64,000 nt of DNA, from contig NC_087080.1 in NCBI RefSeq assembly GCF_026151205.1, positions 16,467,337 to 16,531,336 of the forward strand, given 5' to 3'. Shown piece after piece: positions 1 through 44,931 of the stretch (positions are counted from its first letter, which is position 1; each line of letters begins with the position of its first letter). Both the position numbers and the translations under genes were made by a program. The notes below the pieces were generated by a model. The model was not told the DNA's origin and ran no database searches. It saw only the letters and a program-made list of their open reading frames with translations. Origin of the DNA: Bolinopsis microptera (taxonomy: Eukaryota > Ctenophora > Tentaculata > Lobata > Bolinopsidae).

Positions 1-1609
1 ACAGGACACTACCCTATTATTACCAGTTAAACATATGGTCCCCACTACAGGACACTACCCTATTATTACCAGTTAAACATATGGTCCCCACTACAGGACA
101 CTACCCTATTATTACCAGTTAAACATATGGTCCCCACTACAGGACACTACCCTATTATTACCAGTTAAACATATGGTCCCCACTACAGGACACTACCCTA
201 TTATTACCAGTTAAACATATGGTCCCCACTACAGGACACTACCCTATTATTACCAGTTAAACATACGGTCCCCACTACAGGACACTACCCTATTATTACC
301 AGTTAAACATATGGTCCCCACTACAGGACACTACCCTATTATTACCAGTTAAACATATGGTCCCCACTACAGGACACTACCCTATTATTACCAGTTAAAC
401 ATATGGTCCCCACTACAGGACACTACCCTATTATTACCAGTTAAACATATGGTCCCCACTACAGGACACTACCCTATTATTACCAGTTAAACATATGGTC
501 CCACTACAGGACACTACCCTATTATTACCAGTTAAACGTATGGTCCCCACTACAGGACACTACCCTATTATTACCAGTTAAACATATGGTCCCCACTACA
601 GGACACTACCCTATTATTACCAGTTAAACATATGGTCCCACTACAGGACACTACCCTATTATTACCAGTTAAACATATGGTCCCACTACAGGACACTACC
701 CTATTATTACCAGTTAAACATATGGTCCCCACTACAGGACACTACCCTATTATTACCAGTTAAACATATGGTCCCCACTACAGGACACTACCCTATTATT
801 ACCAGTTAAACATATGGTCCCCACTACAGGACACTACCCTATTATTACCAGTTAAACATATGGTCCCCACTACAGGACACTACCCTATTATTACCAGTTA
901 AACATATGGTCCCCACTACAGGACACTACCCTATTATTACCAGTTAAACATATGGTCCCCACTACAGGACACTACCCTATTATTACCAGTTAAACATATG
1001 GTCCCACTACAGGACACTACCCTATTATTACCAGTTAAACATATGGTCCCCACTACAGGACACTACCCTATTATTACCAGTTAAACATATGGTCCCCACT
1101 ACAGGACACTACCCTATTATTACCAGTTAAACATATGGTCCCCACTACAGGACACTACCCTATTATTACCAGTTAAACATATGGTCCCCACTACAGGACA
1201 CTACCCTATTATTACCAGTTAAACATATGGTCCCCACTACAGGACACTACCCTATTATTACCAGTTAAACATATGGTCCCACTACAGGACACTACCCTAT
1301 TATTACCAGTTAAACATATGGTCCCCACTACAGGACACTACCCTATTATTACCAGTTAAACATATGGTCCCCACTACAGGACACTACCCTATTATTACCA
1401 GTTAAACATATGGTCCCCACTACAGGACACTACCCTATTATTACCAGTTAAACATATGGTCCCCACTACAGGACACTACCCTATTATTACCAGTTAAACA
1501 TATGGTCCCCACTACAGGACACTACCCTATTATTACCAGTTAAACATATGGTCCCCACTACAGGACACTACCCTATTATTACCAGTTAAACATATGGTCC
1601 CCACTACAG
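1..1609. repeat. 46-bp minisatellite, about 35 copies, carrying a splice acceptor
   Basis: Near-perfect tandem copies of a 46-bp unit fill the window from its first base. A few units lack one C in the CCCC run. Every unit contains CCCCACTACAG followed by GACACTACCCTAT. The last copy of this string is the acceptor and first 13 bases of the exon at 1610, so the array is an amplification of that intron-exon junction. The array continues off the left edge. Confidence 0.97.
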
Positions 1610-3661
1610 GACACTACCCTATGCTGATGAATAACAAGGCGGAGTGTGAAGAGCAGTGGGTAGAGCACGGCGGGGAGATGGTGCAGCCGGTGTGGATGGA
1701 GAAGGGAGCTTGGAACATGGACCCTCCTGCTTGTCTACCGTCACCATGGTCACGTGATAATCACCATGGCAACAACATGGACGGGTTTATGAACAACTAC
1801 AACTGGACTGTTCCTGAAGATATCCTCCACAAGAACTGTGCTCTCAGACTGAGGTAACATTTCACAGCAATATAACCAATTATTCCATTTATATAATTCC
1901 TGGCTTTTATATTTTACCTTGAAGAGTTATCATCACTTAGTTGTCTGCACCCTCTGATCTCCACCTAGGTACAATATTACAGCTGGAGAATTACCGGGCG
2001 GAGGTTTCGACTCTAGCATTAACGCTACTCTTAACGCTGAGAAGGACGACGCGTGAGTAAATTAAATTGTTCATCTCAGAGGTACATGATACTGGGAACT
2101 TAGGGAACTAATATATATATAAGGGAATTCTATCATTTGAATGAGGTCTGTTAACAAAGTAACAAAAACACTAAATAACTCTCACTTCTAAAATATCTGC
2201 AGCCCTACTGGTATTGACGTAGCAACAACGTACGGGCTCCCCACAGAGAACGATAGAGGGTACTACTTCCAACAGGACGCTGTGGTCAAGGTGAGACCAG
2301 GCTTCTGTTGTAAAACAATTTGTTTGAAAAACTTGCCATAATTTAAAATAATGGTTTTGTTAACCGGCTTGTGTAACTACCGATGAAGTGCTGATATTCA
2401 AAGATGTGGGCACAAATAGGAGCGGTGATGGTTAGTACCACCCTATGCTCCAAAATACTGATCTAGAACGTTTGTCAGGTATTCGACCTCCCGGAAAGTG
2501 ACGTTAAGCTGGACCTGGAAGTGACTCTGAACACAAACCAGTACGGCAGAACTTTCGAGGACAGAACCCACGTCTTTGAGATAAGGAAACGACCTGACGA
2601 CGTCCCAGAAAACGCTAAAATACACAATTTGAACGTGCGCGGGAAAAGAGGGAACATTGTACAGACGTACCCTGGAGTGGAGTATGATTACCAGCCCAAC
2701 AGACTGGAGATCAACCAGGACGACTATCTCCATATTCAGTGAGAACCACTCTCCTTCCTTATATATGTATTATACTTTCCTTCCCAAATAACATTTAAAC
2801 ACCACATTCCTTCTCATTTTATTTTGACCTTGTTTTAAAACAACATGTTGATTTCAATAACTGATATGTCCCACTAGGTGGACAGGGGCAGACTCAAACC
2901 CGGGAAATAATGCGGGACAGGGCCGAGCAAGGACAGACAGGAACAACATTGTCCCCCTGAGAGAAATCACATGGCCCAAAGAGGGGGCATTCGAGGACGA
3001 GGGTACTTACTTACTAATATATTATATATATTGAAGTGGGATTCTATATTATACCGCGATTAATTTATTAACTAATATAAATATTGATCCACTTAAATAA
3101 CGAAATATTGATTGTTTAAGTAAATAACCAACTGTTTCCTTTTTCTAGCTCACGGTTGTTTTGCCTGCAACTATCCGGAGCTATTCACCAACTCAACAAG
3201 TCTTCTCGGCTTGGGAAGAGACGACCTCATGGCTCTGGCTTATCACTCCGGCAGTGAGTTTGTTAAATTTATTTTACGTTAGAGAATATTTCATTTTAGC
3301 TATATTCGTGTGATGAGTTCTAAAACTGTGAGTAAACATATTAACCTCTTGACAGATCACTATTTCGGAGATATTGAAGAGTTAGACGATACTGGAACCC
3401 ACTTTGACCTGGGTCTCAGACAGATAAAAATGTCAGGAATATGGAGATTCTTGTGCACAAGAAACAACAACTTTACCAACCGCTCTCAGAAAGGAGAGAT
3501 CAGGGTGGTCCCCAAGTGAGTAGATCTGATCTCTATAATAATACAGCGAGTAGAAAGTGGGATCTCTTTATTAACCTGATTATTTTACATTTCATTCGAA
3601 CTTTAGAAAATAATATTAACCAATTAACACTTTCAGATCTGAACAGGCCGAAAGAGCGTAA
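1610..3661 (+). CDS. DD3-3-like secreted protein, paralogue A (3' part, 8 exons)
   Basis: Exons 1610-1853, 1969-2052, 2203-2290, 2479-2738, 2878-3002, 3149-3253, 3356-3515 and 3637-3661 join without breaking frame; all junctions are GT-AG. The product aligns along its whole length with the second gene at 7919-35868: shared blocks include [40 protein letters not shown] and CTRNNNF-NRSQKG. From memory, this is the DD3-3 family first named in Dictyostelium and found in many invertebrates. Its molecular role is not established. This copy stops 10-15 residues after NRSQKG (ending QAERA), so unlike paralogue B it has no C-terminal membrane segment and should be fully secreted. The 5' exons lie outside the window. 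The exon at 1610 corresponds to parts of exons 7, 8 and 9 of paralogue B, and the exon at 2479 to exons 12 and 13. The first acceptor is inferred from frame. Confidence 0.85.
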
Positions 3662-3769
3662 ACCCTAGTGATGATAAAAGAGATTGGTATAATCCCAAGA
3701 ACATTATATTCGGCGATCTTTAGTATGTTTTAGTTTATATTTATGTGAAACAAAATTGTCATGTTTTCG

Positions 3770-3775
3770 AATAAA
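3770..3775 (+). terminator. polyadenylation signal of paralogue A
   Basis: AATAAA lies 109 bases after the stop codon of the DD3-3-like gene, in AT-rich sequence. This is a normal distance for a short 3' UTR. Confidence 0.6.
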
Positions 3776-4071
3776 TTGAGGCTTTTAAAACAAAATCGTG
3801 TATTATTATTTTATAAATGTTACTAAATTTTTACAAAATGAAGCAAGTGACATGAATAAAATTAATTTATAGCAAAACGTTAAATGTAAAATAATTGCTA
3901 CAAATAAAGAAACACCGAAAATCTTGTCTCACGACACGAGACCGCTGCGAAGCTTACTGGGGTCCCAAGGTAACTGTGTTACTGGGGTCCCCAGGTAACT
4001 ACGTAGCAGGCCTGCAGTGTAATGAAAATCCGTCAAATAATAGGTACTAGAAAGTAAGAATAGAAGAGCTA
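3776..4071. other. intergenic spacer between paralogue A and the GPCR gene
   Basis: AT-rich, with no gene recognised. It contains a short imperfect duplication, TTACTGGGGTCCC-AGGTAACT, near 3956-3999. The two genes converge here. Confidence 0.5.
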
Positions 4072-5497: not shown

Positions 5498-5548
5498 TTT
5501 AGTAGCTATTTCCTGAGCATGGTAAAAACTGTTAATATAGTTAACATT

Positions 5549-6874: not shown

Positions 6875-6883
6875 GTTAACATT

Positions 6884-7918: not shown

Positions 7919-10900
7919 ATGATATTGTTAACAGTGCTGCTAGTGGTGGGATTAACGAAAGGAGACGTATACCTGCATGGTCCCAGAGGCAGCAACAACA
8001 GACTAAATGAGCGGGGCAGGGAACGGGCTAATGCTAACAGGTAGGTAATGCTAACAGGTAAGTTATGCTTGGTAGGTAATGCTGGGTAGGTAATGCTGAG
8101 TAGGGAATGCTTGGTAATAGCTTTCTGTTGAAAAGTTACTTATAAGTTACATTACCTGGTTATATTTATGATTTTTGTCATTTCGGGCCATTTAGCACTT
8201 TAGTAGACATTTACATTTAGTCACTTACAATATTTTGGAGGAGATTGGATCACCCTATTTAAAAGGATTTTCTATATGAATATTGACATTGTAAGTTATT
8301 TGGTGAACCAGAACGAGATACATGTAAACACTAAATACCAGAGACAATAGCAACAAACACCTAATTACCTCCCAATTAACTCCTAATTAACTCCTAATTA
8401 CCTCCTAATTAACACCGCTAATAGTAGAATAATGGTTATAAACAAATTAGGAGCCTTAGCTTGTTTTGGCTACTATAGTGATAAGTTGAACCTCTCTCAA
8501 GGCATCAATCAAAGATTGGCAAATGTAGAAACGTGGATTTTGTCTTATTGATCTGACATATCATTTGCAATAAAGTATAAATTCTACAACCAGCATGTAG
8601 ATAATAGACAAGATAACAGGTTTAACTTAACCCTTAACTATTCGCAGACTGTTTGTAGATAATAGACAAGATAACAGGTTTAACTAAACCCTTAACTATT
8701 CGCAGACTGTTTGTAGATAATAGACAAGATAACAGGTTTAACTAAACCCTTAACTATTCGCAGACTGTTTGTAGATAATAGACAAGATAACAGGTTTAAC
8801 TAAACCCTTAACTATTCGCAGACTGTTTGTAGATAATAGACAAGATAACAGGTTTAACTAAACCCTTAACTATTCGCAGACTGTTTGTAGATAATAGACA
8901 AGATAACAGGTTTAACTAGACCATCAACTATTCGCAGACTGTTTGTAGATAATAGACAAGATAACAGGTTTAACTAGACCATCAACTATTCGCAGACTGT
9001 TTGTAGATAATAGACAAGATAACAGATTTAACTTAACCCTTAACTATTCGCAGACTTTTTGTAGATAATAGACAAGATAACAGGTTTAACTAGACCATCA
9101 ACTATTCGCAGACTGTTTGTAGATATTAGACAAGATAACAGGTTTAATTAGACCATCAACTATTCGCAGACTGTTTGTAGATAATAGACAAGATAACAGG
9201 TTTAACTAAACCCTTAACTATTCGCAGACTGTTTGACTCTCAGAACATTTGCAATAAAATATAAATTCTACAACCAGCATGTAGATAATAGACAAGATAA
9301 CAGGTTTAACTAGACCATCAACTATTCGCAGACTGTTTGTAGATAATAGACAAGATAACAGGTTTAACTAGACCATCAACTATTCGCAGACTGTTTGTAG
9401 ATAATAGACAAGATAACAGGTTTAACTAGACCATCAACTATTCGCAGACTGTTTGTAGATAATAGACAAGATAACAGGTTTAACTAGACCATCAACTATT
9501 CGCAGACTGTTTGTAGATAATAGACAAGATAACAGGTTTAACTAGACCATCAACTATTCGCAGACTGTTTGTAGATAATAGACAAGATAACAGATTTAAC
9601 TTAACCCTTAACTATTCGCAGACTTTTTGTAGATAATAGACAAGATAACAGGTTTAACTAGACCATCAACTATTCGCAGACTGTTTGTAGATATTAGACA
9701 AGATAACAGGTTTAATTAGACCATCAACTATTCGCAGACTGTTTGTAGATAATAGACAAGATAACAGGTTTAACTAAACCCTCAACTATTCGCAGACTGT
9801 TTGTAGATAATAGACAAGATAACAGATTTAATTTAACCCTTAACTATTCGCAGACTTTTTGTAGATAATAGACAAGATAACAGGTTTAACTAGACCATCA
9901 ACTATTCGCAGACTTTTTGTAGATAATAGACAAGATAACAGGTTTAATTAGACCATCAACTATTCGCAGACTGTTTGTAGATAATAGACAAGATAACAGG
10001 TTTAACTAAACCCTCAACTATTCGCAGACTGTTTGACTCTCAGAACAATAACAGAGGAGGCTACAATCAAGGTTCGCTGGTCTACTACGAGGGTTCTATA
10101 GTTAATATAGAGTGGTGAGTTAACTACATTAGTATCTAAAACATTAATATTGAATATCTAATATTCTTAAACACTGAATAAGCTGAATTTAGATCTAGAG
10201 CATAGACTTAGAGTATAGAGTGTATATTATAGAATTTTAATGTACAGTGTAGAGAGAAGCAAGAAAGCACTAAAGCACTAAAGCACTAAGCATTGTCACC
10301 TGGTTCAACTTCCCAATTAAGGTACCGATCTCAAAGTGACGATTTTTTGCCGTATAACATTCCGTGTAACAAGGTAATTCTATTACCTATTGTCTTCTTT
10401 ATATCCGGCTGCACGTGCCGCCTTGATATTTCATATAGTCTAAATGACCTGAAACTCGAAACCAAATACGAGAAAAGAAATATTGTTTTGAGGGTAAGGG
10501 AAGTCTAATCTTGAAGGTTTCACGACGACTGTATTATAATAGGGTTACGATAATGAGGGAGAGTAACTATTATACTCTAGTAGCAGGGAGGGGTATAACT
10601 ATTATTATTACTACTAGGTGGTAGTAATAGTATAAGTAATATAACCTAATGTAATAAGGGGGAATACTCATGGATCTGAATGCAGAATGCGGCATAATCA
10701 AATTTCCAGTCTGCCAGTACAGATGATATCACTAGCAAACCTTTATAAAAACTATAATAAAAGTAATACAACGAATATGTAGGGCATATTCGTTACGAAT
10801 ATAATTTACTGGCGACTCCACTATTATTACAAGCAACATCTTTAAGTACAATTAGCAATTATCTGTTATAGACAGCAGATAACAGTATAATAGTAGCGAG

Positions 10901-13900
10901 GTAATTGTACTATAGGTCTTATCATGTAACCTAGTATTATACAGTGTATCATTTCACAATCATCATTGCAACATTGAGCAGTGTACCTAGTATTATAATA
11001 AAGGTAAAGAAGATTGAAGAAGATTCTCATAACTTAATTGCCGAAAATTTTGCAAAAAAAAGCTGCAATGAAGCTCTAATATTCGCCAAATTTGCCGCAC
11101 TCAAAGCAAATGTAAGTAGACGCAGAATACCGCACATTATATATGTTGTCCCTGTTCCAGGGTTGCTTAAAGATATTCTAATACTGTATAGTTTTAATTT
11201 GTAACGCTCGTGAAAGTAACAAATGATTGTTACACTAACAACAAAGCATTTTTAAAGATAAAGCTACGGTTAACAGGTAATAGCACCCAATACAATGTCA
11301 CACAGTGATTGTATGAAGCAGGTAACCCTGCAGTTGTAACATATAAAGCTATAGGAGTAGCCTAGAAAGCTAATATAAGTATGAACTGCAATCTGTGCCC
11401 ATCAACAAACAATAAAGGCGAACAATGAAAATTCTTCGAGAAACAAAAGAATGCAATTTAGTAAATTAGTAATGCCGGCTTTTTGTGAAAGTCATGTGAA
11501 AGTTAAAGTATAAGGCATGGCAAATCACTGTGTCACTGTGTCACTGTGTCACTGTGTCACTGTGTCACTGTGTCACTGTGTCACTGTGTCACTGTGTCAC
11601 TGTGTCACTGTGTCACTGTGTCATATAATAGAACTATAGAATTTGGTAAAAATGTCCGAATATGGTTTTTGGCTCATGACTTGGTGTTAGACATGTTTAG
11701 GTGATTACCGTTTAGTCATTTTTTGGAATCAATGGGCCAAAGGAACCGACTATGGGTTTCTCCTGATCCAGGACCAGTAAAAGTTTAGTAAGCTACATCA
11801 GGGCCCCCTTAGCCCAGGGAATATAATATGAAGGGTTCAAGCGAACGACCACTATGACCTGTCAGTATATCTGACAGTATAACCTCCTCAGGACTAACCA
11901 GCACTCATGCGGAGATCCTAACAATCACTGCGAACTAATTATACAGGTTTGTAAACTAATTCAAACACTACTAATCCATTAAAAATGTATTTATTGAGTA
12001 ATGGGATAACCAGTCCTGGCTCCGTAATGTAAAGAATTTGTTTCAATTCCAGATGAAAAGCTCTCATACATGGAAATATTGTAACTCTTAAATTGGCCTA
12101 ATAACATTAACAGTACATGTGCGGTAATCTGACTCGGGACGGGACCACAACCAGGACTATCCCCGACAGACGGGACCAGTGCGAGAACTGGAACTGTGAC
12201 ACCGACCTAGAGTTAGTCAATTAGTTAGTTAATTAGTTAATTAGTTGTTTGTTAAGTAAATTAGTTAATAGGGTGATTATTAGTTGATTAACGTTATTTT
12301 AACATTGCAGGTTTGGGATGCACGAGAACTACGCGTACTACAGGAACTGTAAGAACAGAGAACGGAACGAGGGACTCTTCACGGCCGACCAGGTTATCTA
12401 TCTTAGTAACCACTTAGGTTATCTATCTTAGTTACTGCAGTATTAGATCTTATCATAATCTCACAATCAGAATTTAGAAAACAAATTTCTAGAAGAATAG
12501 TTCCATGACACGACCCAATACCTCCTAGTGGTAAAGAAGGCAGGATAAGGCTTGTATAATGAACGCTCATTAGGGGTCGCCCTGATTATATATATTAGTG
12601 AAATACTAGAATGAGCTGACAGATTGTGCTCCTTTATTCTCTGCTACCTTTCCAGTCATGGCAAACGCTGTTATATAATAAATGACAGGCAGATATTCAT
12701 GGCCTGTAGTAGGTACTTAGGTATATATGGCTTAGCGGCAGTTAAGCGATTCTTTGTCCATCAAATTGGTATAGACTTGACGGTATATGTACCCTCTACC
12801 TGCTATAATAGATAGGAGATGAGGGAGCCTACTACTCTACTGTACAGAGCATACGTTAAACTCGTTATTCAGGGCCGGACCATTGTGAGAATATATTTAA
12901 TTGGCACCTATCAGATCTTACTTCTACTTCTTAACCTAACCTGTGAACTTACAGAACTTGAGAAAGGACGATGCCAGGTCGACAAGACAGAACCCAGATG
13001 GTACGAGGAGAGGGTACGAATGCCCTGAAGAGCGGGATTACTACCCTTACTGGGGACCTACTCCCTGGATGGTAGGTTACTTAGTAACCACTTAGTAACC
13101 ACTTAGTAACCACTTAGTAACCACATAGTAACCCCTAACTTACTACCCTTACTGGGGACCTACTCCCTGGATGGTAGGTTACTTAGTAACCACTTAGTAA
13201 CCACATAGTAACCACTTAGTAACCACTTAGTAACCAATTAGTAACCCCTAACTTACTACCCTTACTGGGGACCTACTCCCTGGATGGTAGGTTACTTAGT
13301 AACCACATAATAACCACATAGTAACAACTTAGTAATCACTTAGTAACCACTTAGTAACCCCTAACTTACTACCCTTACTGGGGACCTACTCCCTGGATGG
13401 TAGGTTACTTAGTTACCACTTAGTAACCACATAGTAACCACATAGTAACCACATATTAACCACTTAGTAACCACATAGTAACCACATAGTAACCACATAG
13501 TAACCACTTAGTAACCACTTAGTAACCCCTAACTTGCTACCCTTACTGGGGACCTACTCCCTGGATGGTAGGTTACTTAGTAACCACTTAGTAACCACAT
13601 AGTAACCACTTTGTAACCACTTAGTAACCACATAGTAACCCCTAACTTACTACCCTTACTAGGGACCTACTCCCTGGATGGTAGGTTACTTAGTAACCAC
13701 ATAGTAACCACATAGTAACCACTTAGTAATCACTTAGTAACCACTTAGTAACCCCTAACTTACTACCCTTGCTGGGGACCTACTCCCTGGATGGTAGGTT
13801 ACTTAGTAACCACATAGTAACCACATAGTAACCACATCGTAACCACATAGTAACCACATAGTAACCACATAGTAACCACATAGTAACCACATAGTAACCA

Positions 13901-19900: not shown

Positions 19901-22900
19901 AGAGGCCCTGAAGAGCAAATTCCTGAAGACTGCTCAACAACTATCCGAAGACATCGCTACTTTCGGAAGCAGGGTTAAAAGAGCGTACTTTGAGGCGTAC
20001 GGGGCTGCGGCCAACGAAGATCTATTAAAGCTCGTGTTCCAGAATGGACTGCGGAACAGGAATCTTGTACTACAGCTTTCAATGTGGCAGATGGATTTGA
20101 CCGATACGCCAAGGACATTCACCGAGGTCCTGACAAGAGCCCAGAAAATCGAGTCGGCCATGGGAGTCAGCACAGCATTGGAGATCAACGATCAGACACA
20201 CGACATTCTCGCTATCAATAGGCATATACCAGAACCTCCTCGAACTAGGGCTGAATTCCCAGCTGAACGACGCAGCTTCTATCCTCACCACCAGCAACAA
20301 GCAAGAGCGCCTATGAACTTCAGACCTGAGCACACTCGAGGTAAAGATGCAGGACAAAGCGGACCATCACGATATAGGCACCAGGAGACACGGACTTGTT
20401 TCTATTGCAACAGAGTTGGTCATATAGTAAGGGACTGCAGGACAAAGCAGAGGGACCAGTACAGAGACAGGAACCAGAATCAACACGGAGGTTCTTCATC
20501 CCACAACAACCCGGCTTCGGAAAACTAATAAGGCCCTCCCACGACAAAAGGGGGAGGGCCCCTGATAGTATATACCTTTGTCAAGGAGACGTGTACATAG
20601 AAGCCCAAGTCGGTAGCCGGCCTTCCGAGTTTATGTTGATTGACACAGGCTCCTCTCAAAACCTCATTTCATCAGAACACCTAAAAGACCTAGGAATTGA
20701 ACAGAGAAACCTCAACAAGTACACGGCGAACCTTGCCGGAGTCACAGGTACTAAAGTCATCGTTCGTGGCTCCATTGAACTGAGCATTAAAATCAACAGG
20801 ACAACCATGAAGTCCAAATTCATCGTGATCGACAACCCCCTTCCTCACATTATCCTCGGAATTCCCTTCATCAGTGGCCACCACCTGGTCATTGACTACC
20901 AACACAGGAGGCTCCAAAACGAGGACTTCACAACGCCACTGATCTCGCTATCAGCTATTAATCAAGTGGAGGACACCAGCCAGGAACATGAACACAAGGA
21001 GCGGACGGACAAGATCTGTGAAGCACTGGATCTCGAGAGCAGCTCGCTGAACAAAGCTCAAAGACAACAGGTACGAAATCTCATCGCTAGATACTCACAC
21101 GTGTTCGCACTCAGCAGAGACGAAGTAGGTCAAACTCACTTGGTAGAACACACCATTCCATTGACATCTGATGTCCCTGTTAGGTGTAAATACCGTCCAG
21201 TACCACTTCACGCTATTGATGATTGTGTTGAGGAGATTGAAGCTCTCCTAAGGAGAGGGGTTATCGAAAGAACGGACTCTGATTACAGTTCACCGGTCGT
21301 CATCGTGAAGAAGCCTAACAAGTTTAGAATCTGTGTCGACTACAGGGAGCTCAACAAGATCTCGATCGCCAGCAGAGCAGCACTACCAGCTCTCAGCACA
21401 CTCACCTCAACGTTTCATGGATGCAAGTACTTCTGCAGCCTTGACCTACGAGAAGCGTTCTACCAAGTCCCTATCAAGGAGGAACACCGGGACAGAACAG
21501 CGTGGACGATCCCCTCTATCGGACACTTCCGCAACATAGTTATGAGCTTGGGGCTCAAAGGATGCCCAGCAACGATGCAGTCACTCTTGGATAGACTACT
21601 TGAAGGCCTGAGAGATAAAGCAGCAGGCTACGTTGATGACATCATCGCAGGTGGAATAACATTTGAGGAGATGTTTGAGTTACTAGCAGAACTGTTCAGA
21701 CGTCTGGAATCTGCAGGTCTGAAACTCCACCCGGATAAGTGCAGACTATTCCAGAAGAAAGTATCCTTTGCAGGAGCAAACCTCACCGAAGATGGAATTG
21801 AAGTAGACCCAAAGAAGATTGAGGCAATTCAGGATATGTGTCTCCCAAAGACGAAGAAAATGATGATGGCACTTTTAGGAAGTTTCAATTGGTTCAGGAA
21901 TGTAGTCAAAGATTTTGCTGAACTGACACGACCAATGATCAACACCCTCAAGGAACCTAAGTTCGTCCTCACCGAAGACGCAACAGAGAGCATCAAGAAG
22001 TTAAAAGACGCCTTGACCAAGGCACCCATCCTAATATATCCTATCACGACAGAACCTCTTCACCTCTTTACGGATAGTAGCTCGTATTGTATTGGTGGTT
22101 CGATAGGCCACATGATTGACGGACAGTTCTACCCGATCTCCTATGGGTCAAAGATACTCTCTCCAGCCGAGAGAGCCTACCCCACCTTCAAACGAGAGTT
22201 ACTGGCCCTCAAGCACTTCGCCACCCACTGGAGGTTCTACACCATCGGAAAACCCTTCATTGTTCATGTGGATCACAAGGCTATATCACAGGACAAGTTT
22301 CTCCGAAAGACCAACTGTGACGTCCTTCTGTCCTGGATTATGGAGCTAGAAGAGTATGATTTTAAGATCACCTACACGAAGGGCGACGACATGGGGCTAC
22401 CCGACGCACTCTCAAGACTACCCCAGGAAAGTGATATGCTCTACGAGTGGTGGGAAGACAGATTCTCTTCAGTGGAAAAGAAAGAAGAATTTCTGGAGAC
22501 AATCAAGACAAATCAGAATGAGTATGAAGCAATGAGTCTCCGGCCACACGTCATCAACCCAGTTTCAGTGGACACGGAAAGCTCGTCTGATAGTGATCAT
22601 GATAGTGACGCTCCCTGCAGCAGATGTTCACACCCCTCGCCGACAGGTCACTCCTCGTCGTCGGGATCACAAGGCGGTCAGTCGACTCTCTGCAAGAAGG
22701 AAAAGAAGAAGAAGCAGAAGAAACCATCAAGTCACGTATCCCTGACAAATTCTGTGACATTCGTTAATGATCGAGCATCAGAGACCGAAGAAGATGAAGA
22801 GGAGCAAAGCACAGGACCAGTAGGCTCATTTGATAACCCTATACCAGCGCCAAACGTTAGCAGTGAAACTTTGCTCGAGGCACAACTAGAAAACGAGACC

Positions 22901-25900
22901 CTTAGTACCGTGAGGTCATGGTTCGTGAATGGAAAGCCAGAGAAGAGAGAGACAACCGAGTTCAACGAAGACCTGCGTCAGTACTACAGCTGTTTTGAAT
23001 CTCTCACTGTGAATAAGAAGGATCTTCTCTGCTTTAAATGGAAGGGTACGAAGAAGTATAGGCTCCTTATCTGCGTACCGAAGGAGTTAAAGGAAGAAAT
23101 GATGTATAACAACCACGACATCCCGGCATCGGGTCACCTAGGACCAGCCAAAACTCTGGAGAGACTGAGGAACTCATTTTTCTGGCCAAAGATGAAGACA
23201 GAAGTTCAGCTCTATTGCAATACTTGTAAAAGGTGTTTTCTGCCTAACCTGGCGTATAAAGCAAAGCCCAAAGCAGAACTCCACCCATTCTCGGCGGCTA
23301 GGCCGAACGAACTTGTGTGCATCGACCTTATTGGACCTCTATCACGAGTTGCGCAGTACAAGTGGTGCCTAACCATGGTCGACAAATTTACGAACTGGGT
23401 TGTTGCAGTACCACTTACCGATGCCAAGTCACCAACCATTGCAAGGGCCCTAATTAACTCATGGATAGTCAACCACGGAGTGCCTGAACGAATTCTATCC
23501 GACCAAGGAGCCAACCTTGACGCCAGCAAAGTGATGAAGGAGCTGTACAACGTGCTGCAGATCCAGAAGTCAAGAACGACAGCATACAAACCCTCAACTA
23601 ACGGCCTCGCAGAGAACAAGAACAAGCAGATAAAGGTGGCACTCACAAAGTATATTGGGGAGAATCCCGACCAATGGCCAGAGAGAAGAGAATAGGGGCC
23701 GTGACCTTCGCTATGAACACCAGCGTCTGCAAATCGTCCGGTTTCACACCTTTTCTCCTACTCCACGGAAGAGAAGCCAGAGTGCCTAACGATCTCGTCT
23801 TTGGAACTACTTCGTCGGAATACTATCAATCCCAACATCATCTTGCTTCTCGACTTTATCACCAGTTGAAAGATACGTGGGAGCTCGCAGCAAAGAACAT
23901 AAAGAGGGCTCAGCAGCAGCAGAAGCGATACTATGACAAGTGTGTGAGATTGACGGAGTACAACGTTGGGGACAAAGTGATGATTTATGTGCCTGCGATA
24001 AAGCCAGGCAGAGAGTATAACAAGTTCAAGCTACCTCTTACCGGTCCACACACGATTGTTCGAAAGCTAGGGACGGTCAACTTCGAAATTGTGTCAGACG
24101 AAACAGGGAAAGAACAGGTGGTACATTTCGACAAAATCCGGAAACTACCAACCAACTTCAGAACAGACCCTATGCTGACAAACCCAGTGGAACCAGACGA
24201 GGAGGAAAACCCAGAGGAGAGTATCAGTGATTCAGATGATGACGCTTGGTCCCCAGACTACAGCTACTATGGCCAGACGGCAACACATACGGAACCAGTC
24301 GCTGCAACCAGCAGGACAGACGAACCAATGCACCAGGACGTGCCAGAGGACGACAATGATGACGACAATGATGAGCAGAATGCAGCGGAACCTCATGATT
24401 CGCAACAGTCCCAGGAACCTAACGCTCAAACTTCCAATGCCAATGACAGGGCTACAAGGAGAGCCGGTTTGAGACCCAAGGCAGTGCTACGAGCCCCAGC
24501 GAGGAACTACGATATAAGCAGAATATCATGCATCACTGAGCAGCGACCATACTACTAATCCCCATCCCACAATGCGGACTCCTAAGAACCCTCCTCAAAT
24601 CTCGGCCCAAGTTGGCACGTATCAGATTCGCCACCAACATGATCCAGCACTAGGAATGAGTCCTGGTTAACGGGATGCAACGTACACCCGGTTAACCCCG
24701 ACAAGACGATCTTTGTGCTGGTCATGATCAGAAAGCCTATCTGATCGGTCAACAAGGAATACGACATCCCTTTTCCTCCAAAGTTAATGCTCTCCTCATC
24801 AGCTCATCGTTTCGCATTGGCTACCACAATTGGTTTTCGTCTATTGTGCAGGAAGACACAGTCCCCGAACGTCGCAGCCGACAGTGGCTCCTCGAAAGCC
24901 CACACAAAAGGAACAGCTGATGAACCTATGATCAAGAAGCAGAAGGAGATATACCCTAACATCCCTGAAATCATGCGTTATAAAAAGTGAACTGTATCAG
25001 TATTGTAACATTTTGTTTTTAAATTATCATAAGGACTTATAGCGATATATGTTTTGACCAGTCTGATCCACACCGCCCTATATTTTTGGGGAGGGGGTGG
25101 TGTAGGGATCCCAGATATTGGTCGGTTTAAAGTTAACGGTATTTGGTTCCAAGTTCAAACCGTTTTATGTTCAGTGTCAATAGCCATTGCGATCTCAAGC
25201 AATTATTTGGCTCATTAGTTAAACCGTTTTTAAGCTTAATTAAGCAACGCCACACACTGATTAGATATTTCAGATATACCGTTAGTATTGCCTCGCAAGC
25301 AATCAGCCCATATAAATAGTTAGAGTTTTGGAGTAAAGTATTCCCACATTTTCCCTATTCCCTTTAGTCGGTCTTGTTTATACGTGTTGTTCTATTCCCT
25401 AATATATCCTTTTGTTCTAACGTTGTTATCCTCCTCGTTTCTCTTTGTTTGATCCTTCTCAAAGTAAAGAACGCAAAGTAAATTCAAGTAGGAACACGGC
25501 AAACCTACATGTAGGGGGTAGTGGAGGGACAGAGCATCTTCAATATGAACGTGAGTTATGTAGGGGGTAGTGGAGGGACAGAGCATCTTCAATATGAACG
25601 TGAGTTATGTAGGGGGTAGTGGAGGGACAGAGCATCTTCAATATGAACGTGAGTTATGTAGGGGGTAGTGGAGGGACAGAGCATCTTCAATATGAACGTG
25701 AGTTATGTAGGGGGTAGTGGAGGGACAGAGCATCTTCAATATGAACGTGAGTTATGTAGGGGGTAGTGGAGGGACAGAGCATCTTCAATATGAACGTGAG
25801 TTATGTAGGGGGTAGTGGAGGGACAGAGCATCTTCAATATGAACGTGAGTTATGTAGGGGGTAGTGGAGGGACAGAGCATCTTCAATATGAACGTGAGTT

Positions 25901-28900
25901 ATGTAGGGGGTAGTGGAGGGACAGAGCATCTTCAATATGAACGTGAGTTATGTAGGGGGTAGTGGAGGGACAGAGCATCTTCAATATGAACGTGAGTTAT
26001 GGTTATACTCCTCGTCCAAACCTATCATGACTAAGAGTTGTTAACTTTACATATTGGTGGCTAGTGAGACTCTATACTTCTAGTTCTATATATATCCTCT
26101 ACACGCAGGTACGCGGGAAGAGAGGGAATATAGTACAGGTTTACCCGGCTGTGGAGTACGACTTCGCTCCGAACCGAGTACAGATGAAGACTGGGGACTA
26201 CGTACATATCCAGTTAGTGACTATTATATACACACACCCAGTTAGTGACTGTTATATACAGTATACACACACCCAGTTAGTGACTATTATATACACACGC
26301 CCAATTAGTGACTATTATATATGGACACGTTCATTTGAGTTTGAGGATATTGGTAAATATAAGTGACCCTATTAAATGGCACAGTGTAGTTGAAATTGTC
26401 ACACTATGAAATTACATAAACCCTTGATGGTTAGGATAATCGTATCATCCTCTAGGCTAACTTTGTCACATAACGATATCTTAATCAGGTGATAAGATAT
26501 CGCCTAAATAAGGCCGGCACGGAAATGGTTACATTGTCACACTATAAACATGTGACGGAGTAAATATGGACCCCTTGCTGCCGTTTTTGACCAAATTTTT
26601 GAGTGTCCAGTTGATTGGATGGGTACATATGACCATTACCTACATATTTGACGACTTTTTTCGTTAGATGGTGCACTCAGGTTTACTCTGTCACACATTA
26701 AAGAAAATATGTGATGAATGTTTAGGGCACCCTGATAAGCAATGCTGAGTAGTGTAGGTTTATTTGATGGCATGAAAGTGCTGGGAATTGTTATTATATC
26801 ATATAGTCGTAAGGAATTAAAACACAGAAGGCACAACCAAGTTTACTTTGTCACATAATCTTGATGATACCTGAACATGTGTGAAATTGAACAAATAATG
26901 ATATACCAGCTTAAACCCCTTATATTACATACTATGGATCAAACAACACTGCTAGTACCATGCACCAGTCACATGAATCATTATCAGGTGGTAATATGTT
27001 AACAGTGTCACAATTAAACTACCACAACATGGTCAAAAATAGGGTAATTTCGTCACACAAAAATTATTATAACTCTGTTAGCTCCTTGCTGGCAAAATAA
27101 CAAGTTTATCGAAAAATGTTTGATGATTAAGTTTCATAGTATTCTAATAGAGGTATAGTTCTTCAAAATAGGGGCAAGACATGTTTACTTTGTCACATCA
27201 GTTATTATAAGAGTTAGGTAATCGTCATCAGATTAAAAGATATTTTTCGTAGTTTGGATCGATTAATATACCTGTAATAAAGCACCCTATGCCAATTTTA
27301 ACGTGCACTATCTTGATATTGTTGGGGCAGGGAAAGTTAATTTTGTCACATTTTCAGTGTCATTGACAAATTAATCTAAAATTGTTAAAATTGAGCTCTG
27401 ATGTTCTGGACAATATTCTTCCAATCGTTTCTGAAAGAATGTTGAATTCTAATAGAGTTATAGATCTTCAAAATAGGGGCAAGACATGTTTACTTTGTCA
27501 CATCAGTTATTATAAGAGTTAGGTAATCGTCATCACATTAACATATATTTTGTAGTTTGGATTGATTTATATAGGCAATAAAGCATTCTAGTATGCCAAT
27601 TTTAACACACTATCTTGATATTGTTGGGGCAGGGAAAGTTAATTTTGTCACATTTTTAGTGACTTTGAAAAATTTAACCTAAAATTGTTAAACTTAAGAA
27701 TGTTGAATTCTTATAGAGGTATAGAATATAGATCTTCAAAATAGGGGCAAGACATGTTCACTTTGTCACATCAGTTATTATAAGAGTTATTATAAGAGAC
27801 TATTTCATTCTATAATCATTGTTTTTAACCTATTTACGATTTCGTATAATTTTTTGTGACAATGTAAACATCAACTGATCTGAACTTGCATCAACTACAT
27901 TGTCATCATATAAAGTTTTCCTGCCTTTCAAACCAAAATCAAATATAAATAATTCGCCCAAAATTTAAAATTTCATATATTGTGACAGAATTAACCTCAT
28001 TTCCCAATAACCAAGTGCCTGTATTAGCTAACTATTCAAAACGATATATTTTAGGGCTATGATTGGTAGAGCAACCATCAAATAATGAGTTGAAAGGGTT
28101 TTTAGGACACCTCACATTAGAATAGAGGTATGGTATCATGAGTGTGACAAAGTTACCCAAATATTGCCTTGTAACCGTTCGATCCGTGCCCATTAACCAA
28201 TGTTGTATCATAATTGTAAGATTGACCTAATTTACTATACTTCAGACCAAGGAATGATAATTAGACAACTGCAGTTAACTAAGTCACACAAAATGTGACA
28301 TTTGAACCATTATAGTGCCTAACAACAATAGATTTTCTTTCTGAGCGGTGCATATGGGAGTATGGGTTACGTGGCTAATGTTCAGAACTTCTGAACATGC
28401 TAGGTTAATAGATGTCAAAATTAAGCCACTATCGTCGAAAACGCTATTATTTTTGTTTACCAATATCCTCAAACTCAAATGAACGTGTCCATATACACAC
28501 ACCCAGTTAGTGACTATTATATACACACACCCAGTTAGTGACTATTATATACACACACCCAGTTAGTGACTATTATATACACACACCCAGTTAGTGACTA
28601 TTATATACACACACCCAGTTAGTGACTATTATATACACACACCCAGTTAGTGACTATTATATACACACACCCAGTTAGTGACTATTATATACACACATCC
28701 AGTTAGTGACTATTATATACACACCCAGTTAGTGACTATTATATACACACACCCAGTTAGTGACTATTATATACCTAATACACATCCAGTTAGTGACTAC
28801 GTACGTAGTACATCCATACCAACATACTTTTCGCATAAGGTTGTAATACAATAATACTAAACCGATGCGGGCAAGGTATCGGTTAAGTTTTATAGTTGGA

Positions 28901-31900
28901 CAATGTGATAGTGTGATAGTTAACATACCAAGTTATGAGTAGCTCAAACTGCCCCTACTTACTTACCACGGTAAGTTACCGTGAGAGAGATGTATAAACT
29001 GTAGAATAATAGAAGGAATGTTCTACTGTAATTTACAAGGCATGCTAAATACGCACCGAAAAAAACTTAACTGCACAAAGTAAGAGCTTGAGTAATGACA
29101 TAAATCCTAGACAGTCAACAAATCTCTAATTTTATGTATGTCATAAAACAATGAGTATACACATTACACAATAGTGACCACATGTTGTTGTGACCAACAT
29201 AATAGTGTGTCAATAACAAGAAGATGGTATGTCAATAAATTATAACCAAACAATCTGACCACATGATACTGTCCACAAAGCGACAAATAATAAAAGCTTT
29301 AAATAATTACATGCTACTTTATTTAAATAAAGTAGCATGTAGCAGACTATTGTGCTAATATTAGAATTTCTTACCAATGGAAATTATTAAGTTTTAATAT
29401 GCTGGCTCGATCTGTGATGGGATCTGTATAACAGTGTACCTAGCATTAAAACAAAGCAGTATAGATACCACTTACCTTCAGATGGACAGGGTCGGACAAT
29501 AATCCGGGTAACAATGACGGACAGGGCAGACAAGGCACTGACCGGAGCAACATGATCCTAATCAGGAACATTACTTACGACAAAGCCGGAGCTCTACCTG
29601 AACAAACATCAGGTTCTCAGCTTTAACACATAAATAATATCAACTATACATATTCCGGGGGGAGCCCCCTACATATTCCGGGGGGAGCCCCCCCCCCCCC
29701 CCCTCCATATTCCCCTTTCTTCTGAAGACATTTGAGATGATCACTGAAATGATTGATTATGAAATCCAATTAAGTGAATCAGAATAAAAAGTTATCAATA
29801 CTTGCACTTCACCGTTCCCTTCCAATGAACCTAACAAAATGTCGCAGCAAATGAACAGCAAGGACATTGGTCGAGCAACTATCCAATAGAGATTACAAAT
29901 GATACTACCTTCCTGGGCCTTGCCAAGGAGGACATCATTGCAGCTGCTCTTATAGAACAAAGTGAGTTATTGCAGCTGCTCTTATAGAACAAAGTGAGTT
30001 ATTGCAGCTGCTCTAATAGAACAAAGTGAGTTAATGGAAATCAGTTCTTCTCCAATATATTTTCACCAAATTCCGATAAATATTTAATTGTAACTGTAGA
30101 CAGTGCACCCCCTGCCCCTAGTAACTCTGCATATACACAGCTCAGTTCGGAGGTGACATGGAGGAGCTGGATGATGCTGGTACTTACTACAACATGGGAC
30201 TGAGACGGATCACTAGTCCGGGGGTCTACAACTACATGTGTACCAGAAACAACAACTTCAGTAACAGATCTCAGAAAGGTGAAACAGATGCGGATACTGG
30301 TGGGGAGGTGCCTCATCTCCCCACCAGAATAAACATGTATACATCTTGTGAAAACTGGAAAATTTAAATGTGACAACTGCAGCATGTTAACATTACAACT
30401 GCAATATGTTAACGTAATACCTGCAGTATGTTAACATTGCAACTGTACTATGTTAACGTAATACCTGCAGTTTGTTATTGTTAACATTACAACTGTAATC
30501 TGTTAACGTAATACATACCTGCAGTATTTTAACATTACAACTGTAATATGTTAACATAATACATACCTACAGTATGTTAACATTGCAACTGTTATATGTT
30601 AACGTAATACCTGCAGTATGTTAACATTGCAACTATTATATGTTAACATAATACCTGCAGTATGTTAACATTACAACTGTAATATGTTAACGTAATACCT
30701 ACAGTATGTTAACATTGCAACTGTAATATGTTAACGTAATACCTGCAGTATGTTAACATTAAAACTACAGGCCGGATAGTGATAACATCAGCGCCGTTCG
30801 TACAAAAGAAGATTGGAGCTTCCGGGGGAGAGATGGAGTTACCGAACGGGTAGGGAACATTAGTAACTTCAAATATTTGTCATATTGTTGCGCTATGGAC
30901 GGGTAAGAAACATTAGTAACTTCAAATATTTGTCATATTGTTGCGCTATGAACGGGTAGGGAACATTAGTAACTTCAAATATTTGTCATATTGTTGCGCT
31001 ATGAACGGGTAAGAAACATTAGTAACTTCAAATATTTGTCATATTGTTGCGCTATGAACGGGTAGGGAACATTAGTAACTTCAAATATTTGTCATATTGT
31101 TGCGCTATGAACGGGTAGGGAACATTAGTAACTTCAAATATTTGTCATATTGTTGCGCTATGAACGGGTAGGGAACATTAGTAACTTCAAATATTTGTCA
31201 TATTGTTGCGCTATGAACGGGTAGGAAACATTAGTAACTTCAAATATTTGTCATATTGTTGCGCTACGAACGGGTAAGAAACATTAGTAACTTCAAATAT
31301 TTGTCATATTGTTGCGCTATGAACGGGTAAGAAACATTAGTAACTTCAAATATTTGTCATATTGTTGCGCTATGAACGGGTAAGAAACATTAGTAACTTC
31401 ATATATTTGTCATATTGTTGCGCTATGAACGGGTAAGAAACATTAGTAAATTCAAATATTTGTCATATTGTTGCGCTATGAACGGGTAAGAAACATTAGT
31501 AACTTCAAATATTTGTCATATTGTTGCGCTATGAACGGGTAAGAAACATTAGTAACTTCAAATATTTGTCATATTGTTGCGCTATGAACGGGTAAGAAAC
31601 ATTAGTAACTTCAAATATTTGTCATATTGTTGCGCTATGAACGGGTAAGAAACATTAGTAACTTCATATATTTGTCATATTGTTGCGCTATGAACGGGTA
31701 AGAAACATTAGTAAATTCAAATATTTGTCATATTGTTGCGCTATGAACGGGTAAGAAACATTAGTAACTTCAAATATTTGTCATATTGTTGCGCTATGAA
31801 CGGGTAAGAAACATTAGTAACTTCAAATATTTGTCATATTGTTGCGCTATGAACGGGTAAGAAACATTAGTAACTTCAAATATTTGTCATATTGTTGCGC

Positions 31901-34900
31901 TATGAACGGGTAAGAAACATTAGTAACTTCATATATTTGTCATATTGTTGCGCTATGAACGGGTAAGAAACATTAGTAAATTCAAATATTTGTCATATTG
32001 TTGCGCTATGAACGGGTAAGAAACATTAGTAAATTCAAATATTTGTCATATTGTTGCGCTATGAACGGGTAAGAAACATTAGTAACTTCAAATATTTGTC
32101 ATATTGTTGCGCTATGAACGGGTAAGAAACATTAGTAACTTCAAATATTTGTCATATTGTTGCGCTATGAACGGGTAAGAAACATTAGTAACTTCATATA
32201 TTTGTCATATTGTTGCGCTATGAACGGGTAAGAAAAATTAGTAAATTCAAATATTTGTCATATTGTTGCGCTATGAACGGGTAAGAAACATTAGTAACTT
32301 CAAATATTTGTCATATTGTTGCGCTATGAACGGGTAAGAAACATTAGTAACTTCAAATATTTGTCATATTGTTGCGCTATGAACGGGTAAGAAACATTAG
32401 TAAATTCAAATATTTGTCATATTGTTGCGCTATGAACGGGTAAGAAACATTAGTAACTTCAAATATTTGTCATATTGTTGCGCTATGAACGGGTAGGGAA
32501 CATTAGTAACTTCAAATATTTGTCATATTGTTGCGCTATGAACGGGTAAGAAACATTAGTAACTTCAAATATTTGTCATATTGTTGCGCTATGAACGGGT
32601 AGGGAACATTAGTAACTTCAAATATTTGTCATATTGTTGCGCTATGAACGGGTAGGGAACATTAGTAACTTCAAATATTTGTCATATTGTTGCGCTATGG
32701 ACGGGTAAGAAACATTAGTAACTTCAAATATTTGTCATATTGTTGCGCTATGAACGGGTAGGGAACATTAGTAACTTCAAATATTTGTCATATTGTTGCG
32801 CTATGAACGGGTAAGAAACATTAGTAACTTCAAATATTTGTCATATTGTTGCGCTATGAACGGGTAGGGAACATTAGTAACTTCAAATATTTGTCATATT
32901 GTTGCGCTATGAACGGGTAGGGAACATTAGTAACTTCAAATATTTGTCATATTGTTGCGCTATGAACGGGTAGGGAACATTAGTAACTTCAAATATTTGT
33001 CATATTGTTGCGCTATGAACGGGTAGGAAACATTAGTAACTTCAAATATTTGTCATATTGTTGCGCTACGAACGGGTAAGAAACATTAGTAACTTCAAAT
33101 ATTTGTCATATTGTTGCGCTATGAACGGGTAAGAAACATTAGTAACTTCAAATATTTGTCATATTGTTGCGCTATGAACGGGTAAGAAACATTAGTAACT
33201 TCATATATTTGTCATATTGTTGCGCTATGAACGGGTAAGAAACATTAGTAAATTCAAATATTTGTCATATTGTTGCGCTATGAACGGGTAAGAAACATTA
33301 GTAACTTCAAATATTTGTCATATTGTTGCGCTATGAACGGGTAAGAAACATTAGTAACTTCAAATATTTGTCATATTGTTGCGCTATGAACGGGTAAGAA
33401 ACATTAGTAACTTCAAATATTTGTCATATTGTTGCGCTATGAACGGGTAAGAAACATTAGTAACTTCATATATTTGTCATATTGTTGCGCTATGAACGGG
33501 TAAGAAACATTAGTAAATTCAAATATTTGTCATATTGTTGCGCTATGAACGGGTAAGAAACATTAGTAACTTCAAATATTTGTCATATTGTTGCGCTATG
33601 AACGGGTAAGAAACATTAGTAACTTCAAATATTTGTCATATTGTTGCGCTATGAACGGGTAAGAAACATTAGTAACTTCAAATATTTGTCATATTGTTGC
33701 GCTATGAACGGGTAAGAAACATTAGTAACTTCATATATTTGTCATATTGTTGCGCTATGAACGGGTAAGAAACATTAGTAAATTCAAATATTTGTCATAT
33801 TGTTGCGCTATGAACGGGTAAGAAACATTAGTAAATTCAAATATTTGTCATATTGTTGCGCTATGAACGGGTAAGAAACATTAGTAACTTCAAATATTTG
33901 TCATATTGTTGCGCTATGAACGGGTAAGAAACATTAGTAACTTCAAATATTTGTCATATTGTTGCGCTATGAACGGGTAAGAAACATTAGTAACTTCATA
34001 TATTTGTCATATTGTTGCGCTATGAACGGGTAAGAAAAATTAGTAAATTCAAATATTTGTCATATTGTTGCGCTATGAACGGGTAAGAAACATTAGTAAC
34101 TTCAAATATTTGTCATATTGTTGCGCTATGAACGGGTAAGAAACATTAGTAACTTCAAATATTTGTCATATTGTTGCGCTATGAACGGGTAAGAAACATT
34201 AGTAAATTCAAATATTTGTCATATTGTTGCGCTATGAACGGGTAAGAAACATTAGTAACTTCAAATATTTGTCATATTGTTGCGCTATGAACGGGTAAGA
34301 AACATTAGTAAATTCAAATATTTGTCATATTGTTGCGCTATGAACGGGTAAGAAACATTAGTAAATTCAAATATTTGTCATATTGTTGCGATATGAACGG
34401 GTAAGAAACATTAGTAAATTCAAATATTTGTCATATTGTTGCGCTATGAACGGGTAAGAAACATTAGTAAATTCAAATATTTGTCATATTGTTGCGCTAT
34501 GTTCACTATTCAATAACGTTAAGGAGAGCAGATCACCTGAACAACTATTAGAGGTTATACTAAACACTAAACAGATGGAGATAATCTAGACAAAGTATCA
34601 CCTCTAGTACACTGAACCTCTATCAGGGACGCTTCCCTCACGATAGACCCTGAAGCTCTGGACTCAGCAGTGCTGTTCTATATCGAGGAGAACAAGGGAA
34701 CACTTGAGAAGAGTACAGAGGAAGAAAACAACACCAGGAAGAAGAGACAGGCCAGTGGTAAGGCCATGCTCCTTTATAATATATAATAGTGTATAATAGT
34801 GTGCACCTTATAGAACTAAAGAAGAAAAGTGACATTTTACATGTTACGAAGGAACTGAACACGTACCGTGACATGATAAGCTGTTCTGAAACATTTCATC

Positions 34901-44918: not shown

Positions 44919-44931
44919 AAGCTTAAGATAT

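What the first reader, a model, noticed from the sequence alone, without database searches (positions are those of the whole stretch)
1..34500. Minisatellites in both DD3-3-like genes are amplified splice junctions
At least ten separate arrays or duplications (exons 1, 2, 5, 6, 7, 9, 10, 11, 12 on both sides, 13, 15 and 17 of paralogue B; the first visible exon of paralogue A) have units that span an exon-intron boundary and carry the intact donor or acceptor plus 5-50 bases of exon. Units are unrelated to one another (13 to 59 bp and larger), so this is not one repeat family but one recurring process acting on junctions. Seen directly in sequence. That tandem duplication spanning AG/GT can create introns is an established model.
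Basis: partly seen in the sequence, partly recalled or inferred. Interest (0 to 1): 0.88.

Follow-up and report, generated by a model that had tools for sequence, protein, structure and literature searches.

The report
Repeat arrays copying exon–intron boundaries
In three neighbouring genes of what looks like a comb jelly genome, many short repeat arrays copy an exon edge together with its splice site, which the genes seem to survive by using only the copy nearest the exon; this is an extreme case of something already reported in other organisms, and one intron bears a trace of having arisen by such copying.

Summary
Three neighbouring DD3-3-like genes (A, B, and C upstream of the window) have complete reading frames. 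Repeats copy 17 of their 98 exon-intron junctions: 13 in B, 1 in A, 3 in C, carrying 2 to 59 exon bases. In the 16 cases scored, the copy that fits the reading frame is the one next to the exon; 3 of 212 spare copies would also fit.

Blind repeat finding puts 13 of 31 array loci on junctions against 5.4 expected (P 0.0004), but 9 are in B, the gene that drew attention. A plus C give 4 of 9 against 2.8; three myosin genes 0 of 9 against 0.3. A 200-kb sample shows no enrichment. Array density in DD3-3 introns is about four times that elsewhere and no array lies mainly in an exon. Likely mechanism: frequent tandem duplication, purged from exons, tolerated at junctions. Introns unique to A or B carry such duplications in 5 of 5 cases against 6 of 21 shared, but with C included 8 of 19 against 6 of 23, not significant. 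Similar cases are published.

The parts
7919..35868 (+). paralogue B gene, 22 coding exons, complete open frame of 813 residues; signal peptide and one membrane span near the C-terminus by eye only
1610..3661 (+). paralogue A exons 6-13 (exons 1-5 lie upstream of the window in L007)
1..1622 (+). 46-bp array on the acceptor of A exon 6; carries 13 exon bases; 65 copies in all, continuing upstream to C9:16465971
8029..8069 (+). 17-bp duplication on the donor of B exon 1 (12 exon bases)
8596..10035 (+). 58-bp array on the acceptor of B exon 2 (8 exon bases, 24 junction copies)
12391..12432 (+). 25-bp duplication on the donor of B exon 5 (2 exon bases); intron absent in A and C
13038..14354 (+). 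units of about 113 bp on the donor of B exon 6: an 11-mer intronic array that includes about 34 bases of exon end; 11 junction copies
   Evidence: (exon bases counted by eye)
14824..14890 (+). 44-bp duplication on the donor of B exon 7 (11 exon bases); intron absent in A and not at the aligned place in C, where the alignment is poor
17049..17127 (+). 40-bp duplication on the acceptor of B exon 9 (34 exon bases); intron absent in A and C
17408..17516 (+). 14-bp array on the donor of B exon 10 (7 exon bases, 8 copies)
17809..17997 (+). acceptor of B exon 11 duplicated 123 bp apart (33 exon bases) with inserted material resembling the exon-10 donor array, partly inverted
18618..18857 (+). 59-bp array on the acceptor of B exon 12 (54-59 exon bases, 4 copies); GCAG at both ends of the unit (by eye)
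18912..19101 (+). 49-bp array on the donor of B exon 12 (31 exon bases), first part; intron absent in A and C
25509..26001 (+). 49-bp array, second part, beyond the inserted LTR element
19102..25509 (+). LTR retroelement (reverse transcriptase, RNase H, integrase, protease, zinc knuckle domains) inserted inside the 49-bp array; LTRs identical over 409 bases
26210..28774 (+). 28-bp array on the donor of B exon 13 (3 exon bases, 14 copies), split by an element with 37-bp perfect terminal inverted repeats (26321-28492)
29937..30033 (+). 32-bp array on the donor of B exon 15 (25 exon bases, 3 copies)
30844..34501 (+). 53-bp array on the donor of B exon 17 (4 exon bases to the next copy, 69 copies)

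Best explanation
Short tandem duplications arise often in the non-coding parts of these three genes and grow by further slippage or unequal exchange. Those inside exons are removed by selection. Those that cover an exon edge survive because splicing can join the copy next to the exon and discard the rest with the intron, so the reading frame is kept. Junctions are thus mainly a place where duplication is tolerated, with an extra excess in gene B that may come from how the gene was picked or be a real local preference. Now and then such a duplication may give rise to a new intron. Shown here: the arrays, the intact frames, no array lying mainly in an exon, the raised density in DD3-3 introns. 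Inferred: which copy is spliced, how the duplications arise, and that selection cleared the exons.
For: Open frames use the exon-proximal copy (first donor or last acceptor) in all 16 cases that could score; the 17th, B11, was not scored there and its intact frame also uses the last copy. Array loci (TRF score 50 or more, period 8 or more), each put in the class holding most of it: DD3-3 introns 34 in 12.4 kb, exons 0 in 6.3 kb, rest of the 94-kb stretch 27 in 46.4 kb, random sample 121 in 179 kb, three myosin loci 18 in 23.2 kb (two of the 34 are halves of arrays split by an element). P 3e-10 against the sample, 4e-9 against the rest of the stretch. The 11-mer array is intron-only in A intron 4 but includes the exon end in the matching B intron 6, and as three perfect units it was found at 5 places in the genome. 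Two mobile elements sit in junction arrays.
Against: Junction arrays in B exceed this expectation: 9 of 22 vs 2.6 (P 0.0002). With 20-base windows 13 of 98 junctions are duplicated vs 4.9% of intron and 7.5% of near-junction intron positions (P 0.001 and 0.03); other window sizes give P 0.002-0.04 and 0.04-0.20. That asks for more than tolerance unless it is ascertainment. No RNA data show that distal copies are ignored. Nothing explains why DD3-3 introns in particular are rich in arrays.
Confidence: 0.6

Rival explanations
1. A process that acts on splice junctions as such (for example linked to transcription, splicing factors or RNA-templated repair) makes tandem copies of exon-intron boundaries.
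For: 9 of 22 array loci in B on junctions vs 2.6 expected, 13 of 31 overall vs 5.4; C, outside the window, 3 of 5 vs 1.2, P 0.08. An unselected locus, L012, holds what reads as a gene with 12 exact copies of an exon end plus GT and a duplicated donor before it.
Against: A 1 of 4 vs 1.6; myosins 0 of 9 vs 0.3, too few to exclude it. Unselected sample, threshold 4: donors with a coding-like flank 3 of 79 array sites vs 203 of 2614 background (fewer than background), acceptors 4 of 61 vs 79 of 2707, P 0.11; none of the five thresholds is significant, nor the first run. The A4/B6 array looks as if it reached the junction secondarily. L012 was spotted by eye, was missed by the automatic test, and is not a count.
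Confidence: 0.17
2. The arrays mark intron birth: tandem duplication of exon sequence created splice sites and new introns, and the arrays are what remains or what grew from that event.
For: Introns found only in B or only in A carry junction duplications in 5 of 5 cases (B5, B7, B8, B12, A5) vs 6 of 21 shared ones, Fisher P 0.007. A intron 5 begins with 15 of 16 bases identical to exon 5 sequence 61 bases upstream, in which exonic GTAAAG corresponds to the present donor GTAAGG.
Against: The test was devised after seeing the data. With B3 (in B and C, not A, no duplication) counted as differing it is 5 of 6 vs 6 of 20, P 0.03; within B alone 4 of 4 vs 6 of 11, P 0.15; with the 14 introns found only in C included (3 with duplications) 8 of 19 vs 6 of 23, P 0.22. 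Left out of all: A12 and B16-B21, which have no counterpart. The intron start matched flanking exon for A5 only of the five, and random intron positions, many inside arrays, reach a score of 12 or more in 1.6% of 1920 tests (A5 scores 13). Gain vs loss rests on three paralogues, and C aligns poorly around A5 and B7.
Confidence: 0.12
3. The arrays serve to make protein variants by alternative use of the copies, fitting a self-marker or immune role reported for DD3-3-like proteins in an ascidian and sponges.
For: 228 of 229 copies counted keep the splice dinucleotide; three spare copies (one each in B13, C2, C5) would stay in frame without a stop. The HrSMLP1 paper reports individual-specific protein spot patterns (abstract and passages).
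Against: Only 3 of 212 spare copies are usable; the others shift frame or hit a stop. Dinucleotides are expected to be kept in homogenised arrays. The ascidian authors attribute the variation to modification of one gene's product.
Confidence: 0.04
4. Assembly or gene-model artefact.
For: Arrays of up to 69 nearly identical copies are hard to assemble, so copy numbers may be wrong.
Against: Copies differ among themselves, several duplications have only 2-4 copies, frames are complete across 13, 17 and 22 exons, and paralogues share intron positions.
Confidence: 0.04

Closest known systems
Minisatellites at exon-intron boundaries of primate-specific human paralogues (De Grassi and Ciccarelli 2009, PMC2812944; outline and passages seen)
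   Same: Tandem units of about 30 bp on average at exon-intron boundaries of recently duplicated genes, with novel introns as a stated outcome
   Different: There 27 intron modifications across many genes with transcript evidence; here 17 junctions in three adjacent genes, arrays of up to 69 copies, no transcripts
Intron gain by tandem duplication crossing an intron-exon boundary, potato RdRp gene (Ma et al. 2016, PMC4974935; abstract seen)
   Same: Duplication crosses the boundary; new donor taken from a formerly exonic segment, as may be so in A intron 5
   Different: One duplication, not arrays; placed in time by related species
Novel Drosophila introns by tandem duplication (Lehmann et al. 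2010, PMC2891723; abstract and one section read)
   Same: Exon duplication with a proto-splice site, then intronisation of one copy
   Different: No arrays described in what I read; sequence footprints of the duplications not supported there
Tandem arrays of dual-specific AGGT splice sites, human UBC (Duan et al. 2024, PMC10809524; abstract and discussion read)
   Same: Repeat expansion containing a splice site held to be tolerated because the extra is spliced out
   Different: The unit there is a coding monomer with AGGT at its edge; here a minority of junctions show AGGT (by eye) and spare copies mostly break the frame

Membership tests
Intron gain by tandem duplication (AGGT/proto-splice model) | Intron absent in close relatives at the same position | tested here: inconclusive
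   B5, B8, B12 absent in A and C; B7 absent in A; A5 absent in B. Only paralogues, no outgroup; C aligns poorly at B7 and A5, so loss is not excluded
Intron gain by tandem duplication (AGGT/proto-splice model) | Intron edge is a copy of flanking exon sequence that supplies the splice site | tested here: inconclusive
   Seen for A5 only (15 of 16 bases, 61 bp apart); not found for B5, B7, B8, B12
Minisatellite at exon-intron boundary | Tandem units spanning the boundary | tested here: met
   17 junctions in A, B, C; periods 14 to about 113 bp, plus the two-copy B11
Minisatellite at exon-intron boundary | Effect on transcripts shown by RNA | not testable with these tools
   no RNA data
Dual-specific splice-site array | AGGT at the unit edge, usable as donor and acceptor | tested here: not met
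   By eye, AGGT stands at a minority of the 17 junctions (B1, B5, B7, C11, B12 acceptor, one copy of B9)
Introner-like element | One sequence family spread across many introns | tested here: not met
   Within these genes the TRF units differ from one another (by eye). Genome-wide only the first 3000 window bases with the 46-mer array (matched only its own locus apart from two exon fragments) and the 11-mer were searched
DD3-3-like proteins | Sequence similarity to DD3-3 | not tested

The most novel reading that the evidence does not exclude
In this genome exon-intron boundaries are preferred sites of tandem duplication, and the DD3-3 cluster catches intron birth in stages: 2-copy boundary duplications, growing arrays, mobile elements settling in them, and introns unique to one paralogue.
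Probability: 0.15. Interest if true: 0.82.

Novelty: new variant of a known kind. Interest (0 to 1): 0.52.

Why it matters
How spliceosomal introns arise is an old open question with few recent cases. Three adjacent paralogues with 17 duplicated junctions, one intron whose donor resembles a copy of exon sequence, and arrays of up to 69 competing near-identical splice sites give a natural test both of intron gain by duplication and of how the spliceosome picks one of many like sites.

Tried and rejected
First placement null failed to drop two half-arrays because of an off-by-one slip and hid overlapping rows; it gave 12 observed vs 7.1 expected (P 0.02); replaced. First position test weighted long arrays too heavily and suggested junctions equal to introns (13.3% vs 12.4%); with proper collapsing the intron rate is 4.9%. 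and the background rates have the same weighting flaw; one search served only as a lead, and the intron rate of 0.73% is not used for the same reason. The myosin 'open frame' lengths were at first misread as arrays (note); the sequence of L031 did not bear this out. The exon predictor, run on 26 stretches including two myosin loci, gave 23 exons (8 of them in the myosin loci) with 46 junctions, 2 duplicated, both from one doubtful exon in L015. Of 21 myosin introns tried 18 were resolved; two of these have a profile-spacing mismatch of 38 residues, one of 11, and are doubtful. The odds of the intron-birth rival and of the novel case were lowered, which showed that the link with paralogue-specific introns vanishes when C is included.
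Full report
What the place is. The window lies at C9:16467337-16531336 of a 264.65-Mb genome of 232 contigs; contigs C1-C13 are 15-26 Mb and C14 only 198 kb. A ctenophore table gives Bolinopsis microptera 265 Mb but 346 scaffolds, and another paper 13 chromosome-scale scaffolds with 97.23% of the bases (passages). The fit is good but the species name is an inference.

Gene models. By hand from GT/AG signals and reading frame, B is 22 exons at 7919-35868 with one open frame of 813 residues. A starts upstream of the window (13 exons, 591 residues), and a third paralogue, C, lies further upstream on the other strand (17 exons, 696 residues). The proteins align; A and B share about ten intron positions, C shares few. 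This is the main evidence that the exons are real; there are no RNA data.

The duplications. TRF and a copy count show 17 duplicated junctions of 98: A exon 6 acceptor; B exons 1, 5, 6, 7, 10, 12, 13, 15, 17 donors and 2, 9, 11, 12 acceptors; C exons 2 and 11 donors and 5 acceptor. Not all were found blind: TRF alone gives 13; B5, B6, B7 and B11 came from reading. Periods run from 14 to about 113 bp (B11 is two copies 123 bp apart), copies from 2 to 69, exon bases carried from 2 to 59 (B6 counted by eye, having taken a wrong shift there). In the 16 cases scored, the copy that fits the frame is the exon-proximal one; 228 of 229 copies keep GT or AG; 3 of 212 spare copies (B13, C2, C5) would be in frame without a stop. 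B11 was not scored; its intact frame also uses the last copy. Two mobile elements sit inside junction arrays: an LTR retroelement with LTRs identical over 409 bases in the exon-12 donor array, and an element with 37-bp perfect inverted repeats in the exon-13 array.

Is it more than chance? Collapsing each array to one unit and placing units at random in the gene, without exon-only positions, 13 of 31 array loci hit a junction against 5.4 expected, P 0.0004. Per gene: B 9 of 22 vs 2.6 (P 0.0002), A 1 of 4 vs 1.6, C 3 of 5 vs 1.2 (P 0.08). By position, with 20-base windows and two mismatches, 13 of 98 junctions are duplicated within 500 bp, against 4.9% of intron positions (P 0.001), 7.5% of near-junction intron positions (P 0.03) and 2.2% of exon positions; in A and C the exon rate is 0 of 1547 and 0 of 1786. 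Three other window settings give P 0.002-0.04 against introns and 0.04-0.20 against near-junction introns. B was the gene that caught the eye, so its P value cannot be taken at face value. A and C together give 4 of 9 vs 2.8.

Controls elsewhere. In 20 unselected 10-kb stretches (18 at fixed chromosome positions, 2 at the ends of small contigs), splice signals in the edge unit of arrays had a coding-like flank no more often than background: at threshold 4 donors 3 of 79 vs 203 of 2614 (P 0.95), acceptors 4 of 61 vs 79 of 2707 (P 0.11); five thresholds were run and an earlier run at threshold 7, none significant. Power is low. By eye, one unselected locus, L012, holds what reads as a cysteine-rich gene (no Pfam match) in which an exon end with its GT occurs in 12 exact copies and the preceding donor is also duplicated; so the pattern is probably not confined to this cluster.

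Where the arrays are dense. Array loci per kb of collapsed sequence, each locus put in the class holding most of it: DD3-3 introns 2.73 (34 in 12.4 kb; two are halves of split arrays), the rest of the 94-kb stretch 0.58 (27 in 46.4 kb; other genes there are not annotated), unselected sample 0.68 (121 in 179 kb, range 0.21-1.25), myosin loci 0.78 (18 in 23.2 kb), DD3-3 exons 0 in 6.3 kb. The excess is within these gene bodies, not the neighbourhood. Why is unknown; transcription in the germ line is one guess, untested.

Order of events in one case. An 11-mer array, as three perfect units, was found at 5 places in the genome; two are the matching introns A4 and B6. In A it is intronic only; in B each larger unit holds the last 34 or so bases of the exon with the donor. 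The simplest reading is that the array was intronic first and took in the junction later in B; gene conversion between A and B is not excluded.

Link with intron gain. Five introns are found in B only (B5, B7, B8, B12) or A only (A5). All five carry junction duplications, against 6 of 21 introns of A and B that are shared with another paralogue (P 0.007). The test was devised after seeing the data, leaves out A12 and B16-B21, which have no counterpart, and is fragile: 5 of 6 vs 6 of 20 if B3 is counted as differing (P 0.03), 4 of 4 vs 6 of 11 within B (P 0.15), and 8 of 19 vs 6 of 23 once C is included (P 0.22). A5 is the best single case: its first 16 bases match exon 5 sequence 61 bases upstream at 15 positions, so the present donor corresponds to an exonic GTAAAG. 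Random intron positions, many of them inside arrays, reach a score of 12 or more in 1.6% of 1920 tests; A5 scores 13 and was one of 49 introns examined. For the other four the intron start does not match the flanking exon. The potato case (PMC4974935, abstract) has the same logic.

Prior work. Minisatellites at exon-intron boundaries forming novel introns in human paralogues (PMC2812944, passages), boundary-crossing duplication in potato (PMC4974935, abstract), exon duplication in Drosophila (PMC2891723, abstract and one section), and splice-site-bearing repeat arrays (PMC10809524, abstract and discussion) cover the idea. In the searches that ran I saw no title or abstract reporting it in ctenophores or at this density in one gene cluster, but I saw only the listed rows: 4 of 4, 20 of 45 (62), 20 of 221 (63), 10 of 476 (64), 12 of 1,644 (81), 12 of 349 (82); subscription papers are mostly not held. 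A DD3-3-like protein is a reported self-marker in an ascidian, where the gene has seven exons (PMC6916515, abstract and passages).

Verdict. The reading 'one process acting on junctions' goes further than the evidence: frequent duplication in these genes plus tolerance at junctions explains most of it, with an unconfirmed excess in B.

Noticed in passing
L004 1501-1576 (C13:11451208-11451283): A 74-base piece of paralogue A exon 6, 95% identical, lies on another chromosome next to short tandem copies; in the 20 kb fetched around it (L008, L009) no further similarity to A or B turned up beyond this piece; it looks like a pasted exon fragment.
   Followed up: partly
window 17809-17997: Between the two copies of the exon-11 acceptor lie forward and inverted pieces resembling the exon-10 donor array, as a templated insertion during break repair would leave.
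   Followed up: partly
window 9230-9290: Inside the 58-bp array the two flanks of the array are joined, so the whole array seems to have been duplicated once as a block.
   Followed up: no
window 4150-5500, minus strand: A gene that reads like a class A G-protein-coupled receptor by eye; its two open frames gave no Pfam match.
   Followed up: partly
window 44908-45861 and 52881-55610: Further retroelement-like frames: an RNase H domain and a reverse transcriptase domain.
   Followed up: no
L012 5700-7320: What reads as a cysteine-rich gene at an unselected locus, whose exon end plus donor occurs in 12 exact copies, with a second duplicated donor upstream.
   Followed up: partly
L031 3012-3203 and 3255-3485: Two versions of the same myosin exon side by side, perhaps mutually exclusive exons.
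   Followed up: no
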